A stretch of DNA of 64,000 bases from Leptolyngbya sp. FACHB-321 (GTDB lineage Bacteria; Cyanobacteriota; Cyanobacteriia; Leptolyngbyales; Leptolyngbyaceae): positions 186,001 to 250,000 of the forward strand of contig NZ_JACJPI010000083.1 of assembly GCF_014695975.1 (NCBI RefSeq), given 5' to 3'. Positions 1-5,743 of this stretch are shown here, piece after piece. Positions within the stretch are counted from its first letter, which is position 1. The number at the start of each line of letters is the position of its first letter. The notes beneath the pieces were generated by a model, which made no database searches, was not told the origin of the DNA, and was given only the letters and a program-made list of their open reading frames with translations. Made by a program: the position numbers and the translations under genes.

Positions 1-403
1 CTCGGTTACGGTAAAGTGCGTAGGCATCTTTGGTTTTACGAATGTAGGGACGTGCGAGCAACCCGCATTTATAGATAAATCCGGCGAGGCTTCTAGCGGT
101 GTAAGCCCCCCGACTGAAGCCAAAGAGATAAATTTCATCGCCTGCTTCATAGTTGAAACAGAGGAAGCGATAGGCGTTTTGAATCCGTCGATCGATGCCC
201 CAGCCAAAAGCACCTCCTAGCCAGCGATCGAATTTTTCTGGTCCTGTGCCAATGCCCTCGCTGTAATGCACGATTTGAGGAACGCCATCACTAGCGACTG
301 CTTTAACGGCTTGGGCGATTTTGACCACGTTCGTTGGGTATTTGCAGTCTAGGTCTTGCCAAGTGCCATCGCAGCACACAACCAAACGCTTGTTCGGCTT
401 CAT
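1..403 (-). CDS. DUF2235 (Tle1-like) alpha/beta hydrolase, 3' end cut by window
   Basis: The minus-strand reading frame starts at ATG 403 and runs off the window at base 1, giving the first 134 or so residues. It begins MKPNKRLVVCCDGTW, a hallmark N-terminus of DUF2235, and has the nucleophile elbow GFSRGAY at about residues 95-101 with Ser97 as probable nucleophile. DUF2235 is the catalytic domain also found in type VI phospholipase effectors of the Tle1 family, but many cyanobacterial members are stand-alone and of unknown substrate. No secretion genes are visible here, so an effector role is not supported. The family assignment rests on the two motifs; substrate is unknown. Confidence 0.85.
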   Translation of the reverse strand, partial: MKPNKRLVVCCDGTWQDLDCKYPTNVVKIAQAVKAVASDGVPQIVHYSEGIGTGPEKFDRWLGGAFGWGIDRRIQNAYRFLCFNYEAGDEIYLFGFSRGAYTARSLAGFIYKCGLLARPYIRKTKDAYALYRNR

Positions 404-680
404 CGTTCTACCTCTTAGATCTGTAGCTAGGGCTGGAAAAAGGAATTTTAGCGGTTAAGTGACATCAGAATTTATACCAATGCGGTAGCCTGAGAGCACT
501 TCTAGCTTGGTGCTTGGTTAGGCGATGATGCTAAGGATGATGGCGAAAGTTACATTCGCTAGCAGAATCGAGAATAATCACTCTATATAGAAGTTTGCCC
601 AGTAAAGCTCTCAGAATCGGGGTCTTTACCAACCTTTACGTTAATACCACGACGGTTCAAGATGATCGCTCGTTGCTTAC

Positions 681-2060
681 TTAATCCACTATCAAATCAC
701 GCAGAAAGTAAAAGCGATCGGTCTGCCAATCTAATCCTTTACTTCGCCCTAAATGACCTATTAAAGGTGAAGAAAGCTCAATCAAAATTTCATGCATCTC
801 TTTAGGTTGTAAAGGCAAAGGTGGAGTTGCGCTAAAGTATAATCCCATGAGCGTCTCTACTCCAATTGAATCAGAACTTGTGTCCTCCAAGTATTTCTTT
901 GTCAATTGAACTAGAAGCGATCTAACACTAATTTCCCTAAGCACTTTGTCAATGTATTTTTCGACCTCATCATTAGATTGACCTGGTTTTAAGTAATCTT
1001 TGAGTTTAAATAGATCAACCGAACCGTAATGGTTGTTCTGTAATTTGACAAGTTTTTCAAGTGTTTCAGGATTGATGATTGTCATACTGTGTACTCTTGC
1101 AGCATCTTTAAGTTGCTCAGTCAATTCACCAGGACCAATAATCAATTTAGTTGCCCTGCGGAATTGCACTTCATCTTTTAAACGTAACGTTCCTAAGTTT
1201 AATAGTTGAACTGCTGTATCGTTAGGAATTTTCTTGCCCGATTTACACTCTCCAACTAACGGATATGGCTTCGAGCAGAATAAATCTAAACCTCCTGCTC
1301 CTCCTTTGTGCGAGTAGTCGATTGTAAACCCCAAAAACTGAAGACTAGTCCGCACTATATTTTCAAAATCTGTTCCAGCTTGATAGTTGGTTTTACCTTG
1401 GTCACTTTCTTTGCTACGCTTACCCAAGTCTGAAATATTCTCAATCCAAGTTGAATCTGAGTTTTTAGCTTTTGACGATATAAATGTTTTCCAGCCTAAA
1501 AATAAGCTTATTTCTTCGCTAAGTCTTTTGGCTGTAGGCTCAACAAAAACTAGTTGAGAAACTATATTGTGAAGTTCTTCCAGTTCAGGATGTAATGGTG
1601 ATTCCAGATTTTCTAACTGCTGCTTGCGTCGGGCGAAGATACGATCATTGAAAACTGGAGTGTATTCATTAATGCTAAGGGAAGTTAAAAGTTTAACAAA
1701 CTGCCCTTTAGCACTGACAGAACCTTCAACTGGCTCAACTAATGAATATACTCTAAGATAAATTAAGAAGACGTACTGCTTTTCTTGAAAAAGTTCCTGT
1801 AATTCTTTTATAGGTATTGCTACTAGACGTGATAACGCGCCTAAGGAGTCAGATCTACTGATGGGCTGGCAAGCCGAGCACTTAGCCCAAGCCCTAATCG
1901 ATACCTTCTTCGGATCCAACTCATCATCAGGTGAACAAAGACCGAAGTTCTGTCCAGGGTAAATGTACGCTTTAGATATAGCCCCAATAGAGCGTCCTTG
2001 TATTAGAGATGCAGCTTCATTGTCAGATAAATGCAATGCGGACGCAATTGAAATTGACAT
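681..2060 (-). CDS. DUF1802-like protein with C-terminal PD-(D/E)XK nuclease-like domain
   Basis: The protein is 459 residues from ATG 2060; a TTG at 2069 would add three residues and overlap the TGA of the upstream ATPase gene. GAAAG lies just before the ATG. Residues 1-180 resemble cyanobacterial DUF1802 (pattern LIQGR, WAKC..C, LSRL, YLRVYSL), with a Cys pair at about 61 and 64. Residues 225-290 contain a restriction-nuclease-like core: Glu233 in GTDFEN, Asp259 in GGLD, and Glu271-x-Lys273 in GECKSGK, the arrangement seen in Mrr-type PD-(D/E)XK enzymes. The C-terminal third is helical and unrecognised. It is the last gene of a three-gene minus-strand cassette with the ATPase and the 222-residue protein. 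DNA cleavage is inferred from the motif only; it may also be a nuclease-fold protein with a structural role. Confidence 0.7.
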   Translation of the reverse strand: MSISIASALHLSDNEAASLIQGRSIGAISKAYIYPGQNFGLCSPDDELDPKKVSIRAWAKCSACQPISRSDSLGALSRLVAIPIKELQELFQEKQYVFLIYLRVYSLVEPVEGSVSAKGQFVKLLTSLSINEYTPVFNDRIFARRKQQLENLESPLHPELEELHNIVSQLVFVEPTAKRLSEEISLFLGWKTFISSKAKNSDSTWIENISDLGKRSKESDQGKTNYQAGTDFENIVRTSLQFLGFTIDYSHKGGAGGLDLFCSKPYPLVGECKSGKKIPNDTAVQLLNLGTLRLKDEVQFRRATKLIIGPGELTEQLKDAARVHSMTIINPETLEKLVKLQNNHYGSVDLFKLKDYLKPGQSNDEVEKYIDKVLREISVRSLLVQLTKKYLEDTSSDSIGVETLMGLYFSATPPLPLQPKEMHEILIELSSPLIGHLGRSKGLDWQTDRFYFLRDLIVD

Positions 2061-2065
2061 ATCTT

Positions 2066-3997
2066 TCAATCAATTGTAGTAACCAGCTCAAGTGAATCAT
2101 CAAGACTAGAGACACTTGCTGTAGTAGGAATACTGATTGGGAGCTCTTCATTCGGTATATTCTTAGGAATCCTGCCAGAAGGCTTACTCAAGATTTCTCG
2201 AATAAGGGGATTATCAATCACAAGCCTTTTCTGATCAAGGAATTCAAAGATTTGATTCTCGCTCACTTCATAATCAGCCATTCTATTGTAAACGAACAGT
2301 ATAGAAAGGAGTGGTTTGATATATTCACCAGCTAGCAAAACCCACTCACCTTGATGGGTAAGCAGTAAAGATCTCAAGTATTCTTGAGCTCTGGTAGCAC
2401 TGCTAGAAATAGGTTTAGATCGTACTAAGCAGCCACGAGTTAAATCAAATTTTTCGTATTCAATTAACCGTTTAAGAGCTGCGGAAACACCAACTCCACT
2501 TGACTGCTGAACAATTGAGACTCCAATCTTTACAGGTTTTCTCTTTTCTTTTCCAACTATTCTAAAGTCAATATAACCCCTATCATTACCTTTTGCCTCT
2601 ACCTCCTGAATATCCTTTATTTGGACTTCTTCAACGGTTTGACCAATCAGTGAACAGAAACTTAAGTGTAAAGCTTCAACCAGAGTAGTTTTGTCCTCTA
2701 GATAATTTTCTAATGCCCACTCTAGATCAGTAAATTCTTTCTCATACGCAGACTCTACAGGATTCTTAGGAGGAATCTTTAATAGTGTTTTTTCTGCAAA
2801 ACTTGGAACTTTAAACTCATTAGCACACCACTGTAAAACCTTTCTAAAAGTTGGTCTTTCTTGCTTGAATTCTTCTTTAAGCTTACTTTCTTCAAAGGGA
2901 TAAAGCGGGTCAGGTGGAATTAAGTCTTTGCTACAATAAAAATCTTTTAACCATTCAGAAATCAATGCAAAAACATCACTAACACTTAAATAATTCAAAT
3001 CAATTACTTTTTCCCCTATGCGATCTATAACAGCATCAGCCTGTGGCATAACTTTAACCTGATCACGCCAAGTTTCAGGATACATTGCTGTTAAGACAAC
3101 ACCACTTTTCAAGCTATTTGAGACATCCTTTGCAAGGCTAGCTACTACCATTGCCTTTGGAAGAGTTTGCTCATTATGTCCTATGCTGTCTAGCTCATCG
3201 AAGCAAACTACTAATGTTTTGTATTCTCCAATTAGATTTAGAATTTCACCCACTTTATCTAAAGATTCAGCTTCTGGCTCCTCAGAAGAGGAGGATGGGA
3301 AACCCATCTCTTCGGCGTGCAACTGTGATAAGCCTTTGCCAGCAAGCCAATTAATGGCAAACGTTGCATGTGGTTTTGAGAGTGTCCAAAGGATAGCTTG
3401 GATAAGGTAAGGATTGTCTATTTCTGGTTTTGTTTGCAGAACTCTGGTAACAATCTGGTTGATTAAAGAAACAGGTTTCTCGCCTTTAGCTAGCATTTCA
3501 GCCATCTTCTTTGGAAATGCTACATCCACAAGCTGTTTTGGTTGAAACTCCTTTTTGTAGGCATCGCTTACTAAAGCTGTTGCTAATTCTTGCCACTGCA
3601 TCACGCTTTGGCTACCAGTGCGCTTAAGGCTATACGCTAAATTCTGTAAAAACTCTTGCTTTATTCGATCTAAATTGCTGAATTCGCTCATGTAAACAAA
3701 TAAAGCACTACCTTCAAATTGAAGACGATGCCGAATTCGGCTAATGAGGTGGCTTTTCCCTAGTCCTTTTTCAGCCCTGATAGTGATACCAATGGATGAG
3801 CGCTGTCCTGTACGAACCTTATTGATAGCATCGAAAACCATGTCAGATGCATGAGCATTCAGACTTGGAACATCAGGAAACCCTTTTCCCCAAACGTCTT
3901 GCTGCTTTACAAACAAAGGTCGGTCGAATGGATTGTGACTGGCAATTGTATTATGAAGAACTTCAATGGAAGACGGGAAGATATTTGTAGTGCTCAT
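2066..3997 (-). CDS. P-loop ATPase of the nuclease-linked cassette
   Basis: This 643-residue protein has a Walker A site (AEKGLGKS, residues 75-82) and a Walker B site (VVCFDELD, Asp267-Glu268), with a sensor-like segment near residue 303 (VVLTAMYPETW). The arrangement is that of a STAND/AAA-type ATPase that loads or bridges DNA or proteins. Residues 455-560 form an alpha/beta region (YIDFRIVG, then a Lys-rich strand) that could be a degenerate nuclease-like or sensor domain; I cannot decide which. It lies 48 bases after the small first gene and its stop sits six bases before the ATG of the nuclease gene, so the three are very likely one transcript. I do not recognise a named family. The pairing suggests the ATPase powers or licenses the nuclease, which is inference. 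Confidence 0.75.
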   Translation of the reverse strand: MSTTNIFPSSIEVLHNTIASHNPFDRPLFVKQQDVWGKGFPDVPSLNAHASDMVFDAINKVRTGQRSSIGITIRAEKGLGKSHLISRIRHRLQFEGSALFVYMSEFSNLDRIKQEFLQNLAYSLKRTGSQSVMQWQELATALVSDAYKKEFQPKQLVDVAFPKKMAEMLAKGEKPVSLINQIVTRVLQTKPEIDNPYLIQAILWTLSKPHATFAINWLAGKGLSQLHAEEMGFPSSSSEEPEAESLDKVGEILNLIGEYKTLVVCFDELDSIGHNEQTLPKAMVVASLAKDVSNSLKSGVVLTAMYPETWRDQVKVMPQADAVIDRIGEKVIDLNYLSVSDVFALISEWLKDFYCSKDLIPPDPLYPFEESKLKEEFKQERPTFRKVLQWCANEFKVPSFAEKTLLKIPPKNPVESAYEKEFTDLEWALENYLEDKTTLVEALHLSFCSLIGQTVEEVQIKDIQEVEAKGNDRGYIDFRIVGKEKRKPVKIGVSIVQQSSGVGVSAALKRLIEYEKFDLTRGCLVRSKPISSSATRAQEYLRSLLLTHQGEWVLLAGEYIKPLLSILFVYNRMADYEVSENQIFEFLDQKRLVIDNPLIREILSKPSGRIPKNIPNEELPISIPTTASVSSLDDSLELVTTID

Positions 3998-4045
3998 GGC
4001 ATTAGGTTAGGGGAAAGCAATGAATAGGAGAGAGCTTTGGCTTGG

Positions 4046-4714
4046 TTAAGCTAATCGTTTCGCATAGAAGCGAAGACCGCTTACTTTTGACGTTATTGAG
4101 TCTTCGACCTTATCTGAAGAGCTATCCTCAACGCTGCCACCTTGAAGTTGAAGAATATCGTTAGCTTGCATTTCCAACACCCATTCATTAAATTCAGAAC
4201 GAGAAACTCGACCGCCAATCTCGCGACGAATACGATAAATCGGTACTAAGTTGTCCAGATTGTATTCACGATTGAGGCGATCGTAGACTTCAAGCGCAAC
4301 GGTCTTAAATTCGTCGTAGGACGCGATCGTGTCTTTTTTCGCTTTGCCATTTGTGGACGCGATCGTTGTTACAGTCTCCATCTGCTGAAGCCATTTCAAC
4401 AACCCTCTTACTAGCCAAGCTCCCGTTGTTGTACCGTCCAGCTTAAAATCAACCGTTTTAAGTTCTTCAGCCAGTTGTTCCACACCTTTCGCTTCCAGCG
4501 ATACTAGCGAGGATGACTTTTGCTTTTCGACCTTAATCGCGCCATCTTCTACTAACTGCTTGAAAGGTGCAGCTTTTTTGGCACGATCGGGCAGTTTCCC
4601 CTTTGGTAAGGCTGTCTTGTCTGCACCTAACTCCCACAAAGCCAGTAGCAAGCGAGTTGTCTCCTGGGTCTTCGTTTTAGACGATGTTTCTTTAGAAGGA
4701 GTCTGCACTGACAT
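4046..4714 (-). CDS. Unrecognised helical protein, first gene of ATPase-nuclease cassette
   Basis: The 222-residue product starts at ATG 4714. The first 25 residues are Ser/Thr/Lys-rich and probably disordered. Residues 25-80 look like a small winged-helix unit, and residues 130-200 form a second compact helical domain (VPIYRIRREIG, SRSEFNEWVLEMQANDILQLQGG) that resembles a winged helix. The C-terminus ends in a conserved-looking LRFYAKRL. I do not recognise a named family. As the first gene of the cassette it may be a DNA-binding specificity or regulatory subunit for the ATPase and nuclease. That role is inferred from position and predicted fold, not from any recognised catalytic motif. Confidence 0.7.
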   Translation of the reverse strand: MSVQTPSKETSSKTKTQETTRLLLALWELGADKTALPKGKLPDRAKKAAPFKQLVEDGAIKVEKQKSSSLVSLEAKGVEQLAEELKTVDFKLDGTTTGAWLVRGLLKWLQQMETVTTIASTNGKAKKDTIASYDEFKTVALEVYDRLNREYNLDNLVPIYRIRREIGGRVSRSEFNEWVLEMQANDILQLQGGSVEDSSSDKVEDSITSKVSGLRFYAKRLA

Positions 4715-5003
4715 ACGATCAATCCTGTTTTTATTAGGGTGAGTTGTTGCGCCTTACTCATGTTTCCCCTAAAAATCAGCAAGATCACGATCGCACACTA
4801 TGAACTTCATGAAATGCCTATAGTTTGACTGTTAGTTGTGTAGCGATGCCACTGAAAGTAGTCCAGGCTACATCTACTTACGCAAGCTGACTGCGATCGC
4901 TCAGTTTGCCATCCCAAATCCTCGGCTTCTTTATCAGGTTCAGCCAAACAATCAGGATTAAACAAAGAAGTCGGGGATCTTTATCGGTTTTGTGTGGCGA
5001 TTA

Positions 5004-5339
5004 TTAACTGACTGCAAACTCGCTAAACTGCCGCATATAGGGCGACTGATACGCCAACACAATATCCTGCTTAGGGATGCCGGACTCCACCAGTTCATTT
5101 GCGACCCCAATCTCAGTCCCGTCATACTGAATCCAGATCTTTTCGCCCTTAATGTCTACATGAATCAGGCAACCAAAGACTCGGCGACGGCTTTCCCAGC
5201 CTGCATTTACCACCTGATAATGATCGCGCTCCACATCAAAGAGCGTTTGACGCTCAACCTCACCATAGGCAGGCTTAATCTGAGCGTGTTGCGCTAATAC
5301 CTGTTGCACCGCTTGCCGATACTGGTCTAGTTTTGCCAT
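5004..5339 (-). CDS. xisI: XisI, fdxN element excision controlling factor
   Basis: The 111-residue protein (MAKLDQYRQAVQQVLAQH..., with DVERDHYQVVNAGW and HVDIKGEKIWIQYDGTEIG) matches the XisI family. In heterocyst-forming Anabaena, XisI and XisH are needed together with the recombinase XisF for excision of the fdxN element; most cyanobacterial homologues are found without such an element and their role is unknown. The gene overlaps the 3' end of xisH by 13 bases, so the two are translationally coupled. No xisF-like recombinase is visible in the window. The partner XisH has a nuclease fold, so a two-protein nuclease or toxin-like module is possible, by inference. Confidence 0.93.
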   Translation of the reverse strand: MAKLDQYRQAVQQVLAQHAQIKPAYGEVERQTLFDVERDHYQVVNAGWESRRRVFGCLIHVDIKGEKIWIQYDGTEIGVANELVESGIPKQDIVLAYQSPYMRQFSEFAVS

Positions 5340-5743
5340 TGCACAATCACCTCCGGCTCAGGATCAAACACCAGCAGCTTTAACTGATACTCTTGGATGC
5401 TCAGTTGCGGCAGTTGTCGTGAGAAAAAAGACTCATAGACCTCCAACGGCACCGCCAAATAGAGTCTTCGTTCCGGCTCCTTTATTTTAAGCGCTACCCG
5501 ATAGTTCAAAAACTGCCCTAACGCGGTATGAAACTCAGACACCGCAGATGGCGCAAGAAAACTTTTGACCTCGACTGCAATTTGTTCGCCCTCTCGCTGG
5601 GCACCCAGCAAGCGCTCTGCACCTAAATCAACCTGCAATTGCCCATCGACTAGATCGATTGACAGTGGATCATGGGTAATTGTCCACCCGTCTTTTTGCA
5701 AGGCTGCTTTAACTGCATCATGAAAAATATCCCTCGCAGACAT
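5327..5743 (-). CDS. xisH: XisH, fdxN element excision controlling factor (PD-(D/E)XK fold)
   Basis: This 138-residue protein starts MSARDIFHDAVKAALQKDGW and carries the XisH core: a conserved acidic strand (QVDLGAERLLGAQR, about residues 37-50), then IAVEVKSF (Glu58-x-Lys60) and a helix SEFHTALGQFLNYR. The E-x-K pair is the PD-(D/E)XK signature, in line with the nuclease-like fold known for the family. It is upstream of and overlaps xisI. The start ATG at 5743 gives the normal family length. Like xisI it sits next to the ATPase-nuclease cassette, on the same strand, about 600 bases upstream of it. Whether the protein cleaves DNA is not established. Confidence 0.93.
   Translation of the reverse strand: MSARDIFHDAVKAALQKDGWTITHDPLSIDLVDGQLQVDLGAERLLGAQREGEQIAVEVKSFLAPSAVSEFHTALGQFLNYRVALKIKEPERRLYLAVPLEVYESFFSRQLPQLSIQEYQLKLLVFDPEPEVIVQWQN

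What the first reader, a model, noticed from the sequence alone, without database searches (positions are those of the whole stretch)
681..4714. Compact three-gene ATPase-nuclease cassette of no known system
Three minus-strand genes with spacers of 48 and five bases encode a helical/winged-helix-like protein (222 residues), a P-loop ATPase (643) and a DUF1802-like protein with a C-terminal PD-(D/E)XK core (459). The Walker A, Walker B and E-D-ExK residues are directly visible. ATPase plus nuclease plus possible DNA-binding partner is the form of many phage-defence or DNA-processing modules, yet I cannot match it to BREX, McrBC, Gabija, Septu or other named systems. DUF1802 fused to a nuclease domain is itself unusual. 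Function is inference.
Basis: partly seen in the sequence, partly recalled or inferred. Interest (0 to 1): 0.65.

Follow-up and report, generated by a model that had tools for sequence, protein, structure and literature searches.

The report
Cyanobacterial ATPase–ASCH-nuclease defence cassette
Three neighbouring genes, kept together in many cyanobacteria, look like an immune module that recognises and cuts foreign DNA; the gene combination was already predicted in print in one clause, but the way it seems to diversify by swapping parts was not in the papers found.

Summary
In detail: three minus-strand genes, A (222 aa), B (643 aa) and C (459 aa), spacers 48 and 5 bases. They are a real unit: B lies beside C in 79 of the 80 best C loci. 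B models as an ORC/Cdc6- or TnsC-type AAA+ ATPase with a nuclease-like tail lacking ExK. C models as an ASCH (PUA-fold) domain, which is what DUF1802 is here, then a FokI/HindIII-like nuclease with E-D-ExK in 54 of 55, then a winged helix. 'No known system' needs correcting: PMC10853773 (2024) predicts, in one clause, operons of an Orc/Cdc6 ATPase, an ASCH-REase fusion and a triple-wHTH protein as counter-invader systems. I found no name or experiment. New here: 42 of 106 trios share one chromosomal site, where other genomes carry a retron-type RT, a NACHT NTPase or a listed defence candidate; the cassette's ends follow the host genome while its interior largely does not; the nuclease domain is reshuffled independently; tandem arrays and a catalytically dead extra copy exist. 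Best reading: an ATPase-controlled, modification-sensing (type IV-like) restriction module that diversifies by recombination. Defence is well supported; modification-dependence is inferred.

The parts
4046..4714 (-). gene A, 222 aa, probable winged-helix protein (DndG-like wHTH of PMC10853773 by position and size; not modelled)
   Evidence: weak winged-helix matches of its family; conserved beside B and C
2066..3997 (-). gene B, 643 aa, AAA+ ATPase
2783..3967 (-). B residues 11-405: AAA+ module of ORC/Cdc6-TnsC fold
   Evidence: Drosophila Cdc6 Z 15.2, rmsd 3.4, 242 aligned; ShTnsC Z 14.7, tied
3749..3775 (-). B residues 75-83: Walker A (AEKGLGKSH)
   Evidence: G78, G80, K81 in 61 of 61
3194..3211 (-). 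B residues 263-268: Walker B (VVCFDE)
   Evidence: D267 in 61 of 61, E268 in 56 of 61
2333..2692 (-). B residues 436-555: nuclease-like alpha/beta domain without ExK (proposed inactive REase)
   Evidence: element order in the model, I-G-V at the ExK position; fold not searched alone
681..2060 (-). gene C, 459 aa (ATG start; TTG at 2069 also possible), ASCH-nuclease-winged helix
1656..2060 (-). C residues 1-135: ASCH/PUA-fold domain (Pfam DUF1802 matches 48-148)
   Evidence: ZmASCH E 3.2e-4, probability 1.00; ZmASCH 5gus Z 10.2, rmsd 3.0, 124 aligned
936..1466 (-). C residues 199-375: PD-(D/E)XK nuclease domain
   Evidence: N.BspD6I Z 14.0, FokI Z 13.1, HindIII Z 10.9; Mrr_cat in 42 of 55 homologues
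1242..1364 (-). C catalytic residues E233, D259, E271-x-K273
   Evidence: 54 of 55
684..932 (-). C residues 377-459: winged helix
   Evidence: Cdc6 winged helix Z 10.3, rmsd 1.8, 81 aligned

Best explanation
The cassette is a chromosomal counter-invader restriction module. C is the effector: its ASCH domain reads a base modification or another feature of invading DNA, its winged helix helps it dock on DNA, and its PD-(D/E)XK domain cuts. B, an AAA+ ATPase of ORC/Cdc6-TnsC type, is proposed to assemble on DNA, with A (winged-helix adaptor) and its own nuclease-like, probably dead tail as DNA contacts, and to license or recruit C by ATP binding or hydrolysis, much as the AAA+ McrB ring controls the nuclease McrC. 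Shown: the gene unit, the kept ATPase and nuclease residues, the shared site and the block-wise inheritance. Shown as models only: the folds of B and C. Inferred: foreign DNA as target, modified bases as trigger (about even odds), the ATPase as licensing switch. The locus appears to diversify by homologous recombination between conserved ends, exchanging the A(C-terminal half)-B-ASCH core together and the nuclease and terminal winged helix as separate blocks.
For: Conserved three-gene unit. ASCH-nuclease-wH architecture with catalytic residues kept; PUA-superfamily sensor plus nuclease is the design of many modification-dependent restriction enzymes (PMC7897488, abstract start in the listing; PMC12707154, passages). 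Shared site: 42 of 106 trios have the same MDH-like gene within 9 kb, 50 of 106 have the PGI gene in the stretch. Of 19 stretches from genomes with MDH but no C, 5 keep PGI: 2 hold only small genes between (L175, L179), 3 hold defence-type genes: NACHT NTPase (L171), SLFN/AlbA protein and an RT matching PADLOC retron-type models (L172), helicase matching PADLOC candidate PDC-S28 at E 2.3e-276 (L183); L184 (no PGI seen) holds a SNF2/ResIII helicase, L186 trio remnants. Allele replacement: MDH 97% and PGI 98% identical while B is 44% and C 57% identical (L049/L082). Host signal: rank correlation with MDH distance 0.61-0.70 in the first two thirds of A, -0.09 to 0.18 through B, 0.00-0.11 in the nuclease, 0.31 at C's end. 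B is split in 4 of 60 stretches, as for a dispensable gene. PMC10853773 independently predicts a counter-invader role.
Against: No experiment. B has no match in phages, C none in plasmids or confirmed in viral contigs, whereas PMC10853773 calls such neighbourhoods mobile. The window's own copy is not at the MDH-PGI site, and of its neighbours I scanned only XisI, XisH and a GAF protein, none a known defence gene. The NACHT gene at the site has no PADLOC match, and the genes of 12 of the 19 trio-less stretches were not scanned. ASCH as a DNA 6mA reader is predicted but unproven (PMC11037411, passages), and solved ASCH relatives include the YqfB amidohydrolase and a reported ssRNA ribonuclease (reference title). 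B is tied between ORC/Cdc6 and TnsC. C is in 65 of 89 genomes of one family, a spread that a chromosomal upkeep role could also give. Broken B genes may be sequencing errors.
Confidence: 0.7

Rival explanations
1. Abortive or RNA-directed defence: the ASCH domain binds RNA or a small ligand, and the nuclease is released by B to damage host nucleic acid and stop the phage by killing the cell.
For: PUA/ASCH domains are generally RNA-associated (PMC7641849, passages), and ZmASCH, among the Foldseek matches, has a reported ssRNA ribonuclease activity (reference title seen). STAND-like NTPase plus nuclease is a common suicide design (recalled). The site also hosts a NACHT NTPase and a retron-type RT in other genomes.
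Against: The nuclease domain resembles DNA restriction enzymes (FokI, BspD6I, HindIII), winged helices flank the system, and no separate toxin or antitoxin gene is conserved beside it.
Confidence: 0.13
2. Chromosome upkeep: an ORC/Cdc6-like loader with a structure-specific nuclease for replication, repair or recombination in large cyanobacterial genomes.
For: The B fold is closest to ORC/Cdc6; C matches the mismatch nuclease EndoMS (Z 8.7); C is in 65 of 89 genomes of one family.
Against: Patchy even within that family (24 of 89 without C at E 1e-20), alternative defence-type occupants of the site, allele replacement, tandem arrays, broken copies and a catalytically dead duplicate.
Confidence: 0.1
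3. Part of a Tn7-like transposition or targeting machine: B as TnsC, C as a TnsA-like nuclease, A as target binder.
For: B is tied with TnsC structures (Z 14.7); C is nuclease plus winged helix.
Against: No conserved further gene partner; no long terminal inverted repeats around the window copy (region 300-5000); cassette ends follow the host chromosome; no match in the plasmid (C) or phage (B) collections. Neighbours were not each scanned for transposases.
Confidence: 0.05

Closest known systems
Orc/Cdc6 - ASCH-REase - DndG-like wHTH operons (Rakesh, Aravind, Krishnan 2024, PMC10853773, section 22)
   Same: Same three components in an operon; inactive REase behind the AAA+ core; predicted counter-invader role
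   Different: There one clause without name or experiment in the section read; here tied to KAP/DUF1802-annotated cyanobacterial genes, with shared site, tandem arrays and block-wise inheritance. Its supplement, which may list these genes, was not readable
HerA/FtsK capture systems (same paper); DndFGH/SspFGH
   Same: Sister module in the same phylum: A'-B'-(DEDD exonuclease + PD-(D/E)XK + FtsK/HerA) in L078, L079, L081, L085
   Different: The trio has no HerA/FtsK translocase; its effector is the ASCH-nuclease
McrBC and other type IV, modification-dependent restriction (EVE-HNH VcaM4I, YTH-McrB)
   Same: PUA-superfamily-type reader, nuclease and, in McrBC, an AAA+ partner
   Different: Reader fused to the nuclease, not to the ATPase; ATPase of ORC/Cdc6-TnsC type; no AAA_5 or McrC profile match
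BREX (BrxC/BrxB/PglZ)
   Same: ORC/Cdc6-type ATPase with winged helices (PMC12839542, passages); BrxC chain 9zll_B among Foldseek matches of B, E 5.6e-3
   Different: B is half the length of BrxC and has no BrxC match in PADLOC; an ASCH-nuclease instead of PglZ in the operon

Membership tests
Orc/Cdc6 - ASCH-REase - wHTH operon (PMC10853773) | Operonic coupling of ATPase, REase-ASCH and small wHTH protein | tested here: met
   A in 56 and C in 52 of 60 stretches around B; B beside 79 and A beside 75 of 80 C; same strand. That A is a wHTH protein rests on weak matches
Orc/Cdc6 - ASCH-REase - wHTH operon (PMC10853773) | REase domain fused to an ASCH domain | tested here: met
   Model of C with ASCH matches at residues 1-135 and FokI/HindIII-type matches at 199-375; catalytic residues 54 of 55
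Orc/Cdc6 - ASCH-REase - wHTH operon (PMC10853773) | AAA+ ATPase of the Orc/Cdc6 clade | tested here: inconclusive
   Cdc6/ORC Z up to 15.2, but TnsC Z 14.7 is tied; plain Foldseek lists FtsH first with low TM-scores; Walker motifs kept
Orc/Cdc6 - ASCH-REase - wHTH operon (PMC10853773) | Inactive REase between AAA+ core and C-terminal wHTH of the ATPase | tested here: inconclusive
   Fitting element order at 436-555 and no ExK; this part was not folded or searched alone
Orc/Cdc6 - ASCH-REase - wHTH operon (PMC10853773) | DndG-like triple-wHTH protein | tested here: inconclusive
   Weak winged-helix matches of A's family (eS10 E 0.0085; SelB-wing_2 in 11 and DUF6293_C in 9 of 54); no model of A, no DndG comparison
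McrBC | McrB-type AAA_5 domain and McrC profile | tested here: not met
   No PF07728 for B and no McrC for C at E <= 1; no McrC among the 25 families shown for 55 C proteins
HerA/FtsK capture, DndFGH, SspFGH | HerA/FtsK translocase | tested here: not met
   No such Pfam match in A, B or C; found only in the A'B' sister module
BREX | BrxC ATPase profile | tested here: not met
   No BrxC model for B in PADLOC at E <= 1
BREX | PglZ and methyltransferase in the locus | not tested
   Neighbours were clustered but not each scanned
Tn7-like transposition (TnsA/TnsC) | DDE transposase partner and element ends | tested here: inconclusive
   No conserved further partner, no long terminal inverted repeats in window 300-5000; transposases not searched

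The most novel reading that the evidence does not exclude
The trio is a recombination-driven, modification-sensing immune locus: the cassette ends (start of A, end of C) stay with the host chromosome while the interior is replaced from a shared gene pool, and the nuclease domain is exchanged independently of the co-inherited A-B-ASCH recognition core. It would be an hsd-like diversity generator for a type IV-like system, with an ASCH domain as the DNA-modification reader that has been predicted but not shown.
Probability: 0.4. Interest if true: 0.75.

Novelty: new member of a known kind. Interest (0 to 1): 0.5.

Why it matters
ASCH domains have been predicted to read N6-methyladenine in DNA without experimental proof (PMC11037411, passages). 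Here an ASCH domain is fused to a nuclease with kept active residues beside a dedicated ATPase, with 253 genome stretches encoding a relative of C, so the prediction can be tested with one expression plasmid and a few modified DNAs. The block-wise inheritance suggests which parts must match (A C-terminal half, B, ASCH) and which can be swapped (nuclease, terminal winged helix), and it marks a chromosomal site in heterocystous-type genomes that can be mined for other defence genes.

Tried and rejected
Chance gene cluster: rejected. Nuclease with lost catalytic residues: rejected for the window copy. Named systems by profile: PADLOC gave only weak matches (DarT E 0.024 for B; PDC-S02 0.0066 and ZorD 0.029 for C); NCBIfam gave ATPase_Sll1717 at 31.3 bits against a cut-off of 75 and an anti-phage ATPase model (DS41_1) at 18.5 against 370. 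By sequence the PDB held no match for B alone or the C profile and only weak P-loop matches for the B profile (best E 0.0075). B in phages, C in plasmids and C in viral contigs (14 pattern matches, none confirmed) gave nothing; the other pairings were not run.

A physical-contact reading of the covariation between A's N-terminal part and C's last 41 residues (rho 0.48 over 106 trios) was set aside, because both ends also follow the host genes and within trios near MDH or PGI it falls to 0.22 or 0.32; it is 0.40 in the 42 trios with neither in the stretch, so contact is not excluded. Where the other 173 of 253 C relatives occur was not seen; only the best 80 are listed.

Literature: DUF1802 occurs in one paper of the held library, on soil gene networks (listing only). 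Searches for ASCH/Cdc6/REase/FtsK/anti-phage/wHTH (7 papers) and for papers that hold the DOI string of PMC10853773 (7 papers) showed no name for this trio; of these, passages were read in PMC12839542, PMC12707154 and PMC8195603 and section 22 of PMC10853773; the rest are known from the listing only.

Against my reading: host signal inside the cassette is small but not nil everywhere (B 11-90 rho 0.18, p 0.005; B 251-330 0.13, p 0.036; C 71-150 0.19, p 0.011; C 376-420 0.18, p 0.002); ASCH-nuclease and nuclease-winged-helix covariation is low but not zero (0.11, p 0.02; 0.09, p 0.034); one close pair keeps fairly similar cassettes (L038/L082: MDH 96, A 83, B 65, C 68%). Of 19 trio-less MDH stretches, 12 show no PGI and their genes were not scanned; L178 among them has a 74-aa A-like piece.

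Full report
What is there. Spacers are 48 bases (A-B) and 5 bases (B-C, ATG start), or a 4-base overlap (TTG start). Pfam gives KAP_NTPase for B above its cut-off, DUF1802 and a sub-threshold Mrr_cat for C, and nothing credible for A. Among 55 aligned C proteins DUF1802 matches 55 and Mrr_cat 42 at E <= 1. The window's genome has one match to B.

It is a unit. B has a match at E <= 1e-5 in 68 of 386 cyanobacterial genomes, distant paralogues included. Sixty stretches of 5-18 kb around matches of different depth, the window's own included, were fetched: A is in 56 and C in 52 of them, on B's strand. Starting from C, a scan of the species-genome collection found 253 stretches encoding a relative; the best 80, all with cyanobacterial record titles, were kept. 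B lies beside C in 79 of these 80 and A in 75; the one without B and 4 of the 5 without A begin at a contig end. The plain order A-B-C stands alone in 65 of 80. Some loci carry tandem copies: L106 (Oscillatoria sp. PCC 10802) reads B-ABC-AABC-AB and L165 (Calothrix sp. NIES-4105) ABC-ABC-C. In L142 an extra C follows a normal one and has lost all four catalytic residues.

Folds. B was modelled on 61 sequences (pLDDT 89.0, pTM 0.77). Residues within 11-405 align with ORC/Cdc6 ATPases (Drosophila Cdc6 Z 15.2, rmsd 3.4, 242 aligned) and, tied, with TnsC (Z 14.7, rmsd 4.2, 236 aligned); the RADAR ATPase RdrA scores 13.9. Plain Foldseek ranks FtsH first (E 2.4e-4) with low TM-scores throughout, and lists a BrxC chain at E 5.6e-3. 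Residues 436-555 have the helix-strand order of a PD-(D/E)XK fold (my reading), but the ExK position reads I-G-V (I in 61, G in 55, V in 57 of 61), which fits the inactive REase that PMC10853773 places between AAA+ core and wHTH. C was modelled on 55 sequences (pLDDT 85.1, pTM 0.58). Its start matches ASCH structures (Foldseek E 3.2e-4, probability 1.00; ZmASCH 5gus Z 10.2, rmsd 3.0, 124 aligned, residues 6-134), residues 199-374 match N.BspD6I (Z 14.0), FokI (13.1) and HindIII (10.9), and residues 377-459 the winged helix of Cdc6 (Z 10.3, rmsd 1.8, 81 aligned). So DUF1802 in this family is an ASCH/PUA-fold domain by model; the held library has one paper with the word DUF1802, seen as a listing. 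A was not modelled; its family shows weak winged-helix matches.

Where it sits. In many genomes of one family (f7; Nostocales by the names, an inference) the trio lies between an MDH-like gene (Pfam Ldh_1) and a PGI gene. Of 106 distinct trios 42 have MDH within 9 kb and 50 have PGI in the stretch. In 89 genomes of that family MDH is found in 70 (E <= 1e-90) and C in 65 (E <= 1e-20). Twenty have MDH but no C; 19 were fetched (one with MDH at a contig end was left out). Five keep PGI: L175 and L179 have only small genes between; L171 has a NACHT NTPase (no PADLOC match); L172 an SLFN_AlbA-TPR protein and a reverse transcriptase matching PADLOC RT models XI, XII and I-C (best E 1.1e-137; that these are retron types is recalled, an Ec107-like retron model matches at 1.1e-67); L183 a helicase matching PADLOC candidate PDC-S28 (E 2.3e-276). 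L184 has a SNF2/ResIII helicase (PADLOC DpdE/DrmD models, E 4e-17 and weaker) beside the usual small genes, and L186 trio remnants. The other 12 show no PGI; their genes were not scanned. I read this as a hotspot with defence-type alternative cargo.

How it evolves. In the 14 of 60 stretches with the MDH cluster, flanks and cassette disagree: L049 and L082 have MDH 97 and PGI 98% identical but A 80, B 44, C 57%; L053 and L073 have MDH 96% but A 57, B 33, C 61%; a milder pair is L038/L082 (MDH 96, A 83, B 65, C 68%). Over the 42 trios near MDH, the rank correlation with MDH distance is 0.61 and 0.70 in the first two thirds of A, 0.29 in its last third, -0.09 to 0.18 in seven windows of B, -0.02 and 0.19 in C 1-150, 0.00 and 0.11 in the nuclease, and 0.18 then 0.31 at C's end (Mantel tests). 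The window C 205-290 is more conserved (mean distance 0.30) than A (0.33-0.38) yet shows no host signal, so fast change alone does not explain it. Over all 106 trios, A's C-terminal half, B and ASCH covary (0.47-0.77 between proteins), while the nuclease covaries with itself (halves 0.79) and at most 0.13 with any other part (0.20 within the main nuclease subtype); C's winged helix is a third block (halves 0.56) tied, in its last part, to A's N-terminal part (0.48). Two nuclease subtypes, told apart by a motif (88 and 18 of 106), change at least 15 times on the B tree; 200 label shuffles give a mean of 16.9 and a minimum of 13, so no phylogenetic signal is seen. B is split in 4 of 60 stretches (L070, L076, L083, L089), some of which could be sequencing errors.

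What is known. [quoted passage not shown] That describes this trio. The same section describes Orc/Cdc6 systems with a HerA/FtsK and, in some, a fused 3'-5' exonuclease, which fits the sister module A'-B'-c28 in L078, L079, L081 and L085. I found no name and no experiment. The supplement was not readable, so these cyanobacterial genes may be listed there.

Mechanism. PUA-superfamily sensors fused to nucleases are a common design of modification-dependent restriction enzymes (PMC7897488, abstract start; PMC12707154, passages). By that logic C is reader plus cutter, and B with A the ATP-driven platform that loads or licenses it. Shown: gene unit, kept active residues, shared site, block-wise inheritance; folds by prediction. 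Inferred: DNA as target, modified base as signal, ATPase as switch. The independent exchange of nuclease variants on one A-B-ASCH core suggests that recognition and licensing are matched while the cutting module is interchangeable.

Verdict.

Noticed in passing
window 5004-5743(-): XisI (PF08869, 4e-46) and XisH (PF08814, 7e-57) genes, overlapping by 13 bases, lie 289 bases upstream of gene A.
   Followed up: no
L078, L079, L081, L085 (e.g. L079:3109-8710, minus strand): Sister module: A'(267-313 aa)-B'(680-699 aa)-a 860-885 aa protein; the L079 copy of the last has DEDD exonuclease, PD-(D/E)XK and FtsK domains and matches an SspH model at E 8.7e-70; a ParA-like gene follows (L078 copy scanned). 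Fits the published HerA/FtsK capture class.
   Followed up: partly
L067, L068 (and L065): B homologue without recognisable A or C; in L067 and L068 it lies after a pterin-binding-enzyme gene and a 221-224 aa protein without Pfam match and before a von Willebrand A protein and a formyltransferase: a possible branch with another role.
   Followed up: no
L040:5441-6481, L190 and others beside the trio: Repeated pairs of a 105-aa protein and a 120-aa clan AA aspartic-protease-like protein (TIGR03698, E 2.5e-10, below its cut-off), often with 4-base overlaps, sit beside the trio in 11-13 of 60 stretches.
   Followed up: partly
L061:4237-6690, L066:6545-8998: B with a C-terminal extension to 817 aa that shares a conserved block in both.
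   Followed up: no
L190:7980-9827(-): C of 615 aa with a long extra stretch between the ASCH and nuclease parts.
   Followed up: no
L142:9848-11293(+): Extra C downstream of a normal C with all four catalytic residues replaced (Q, N, T, P): a decaying duplicate or a dead regulator.
   Followed up: no
L035:6386-7360 (also L096:3882-4856): A second, longer A-like protein (324 aa) 568 bases upstream of the normal A; no PADLOC match.
   Followed up: no
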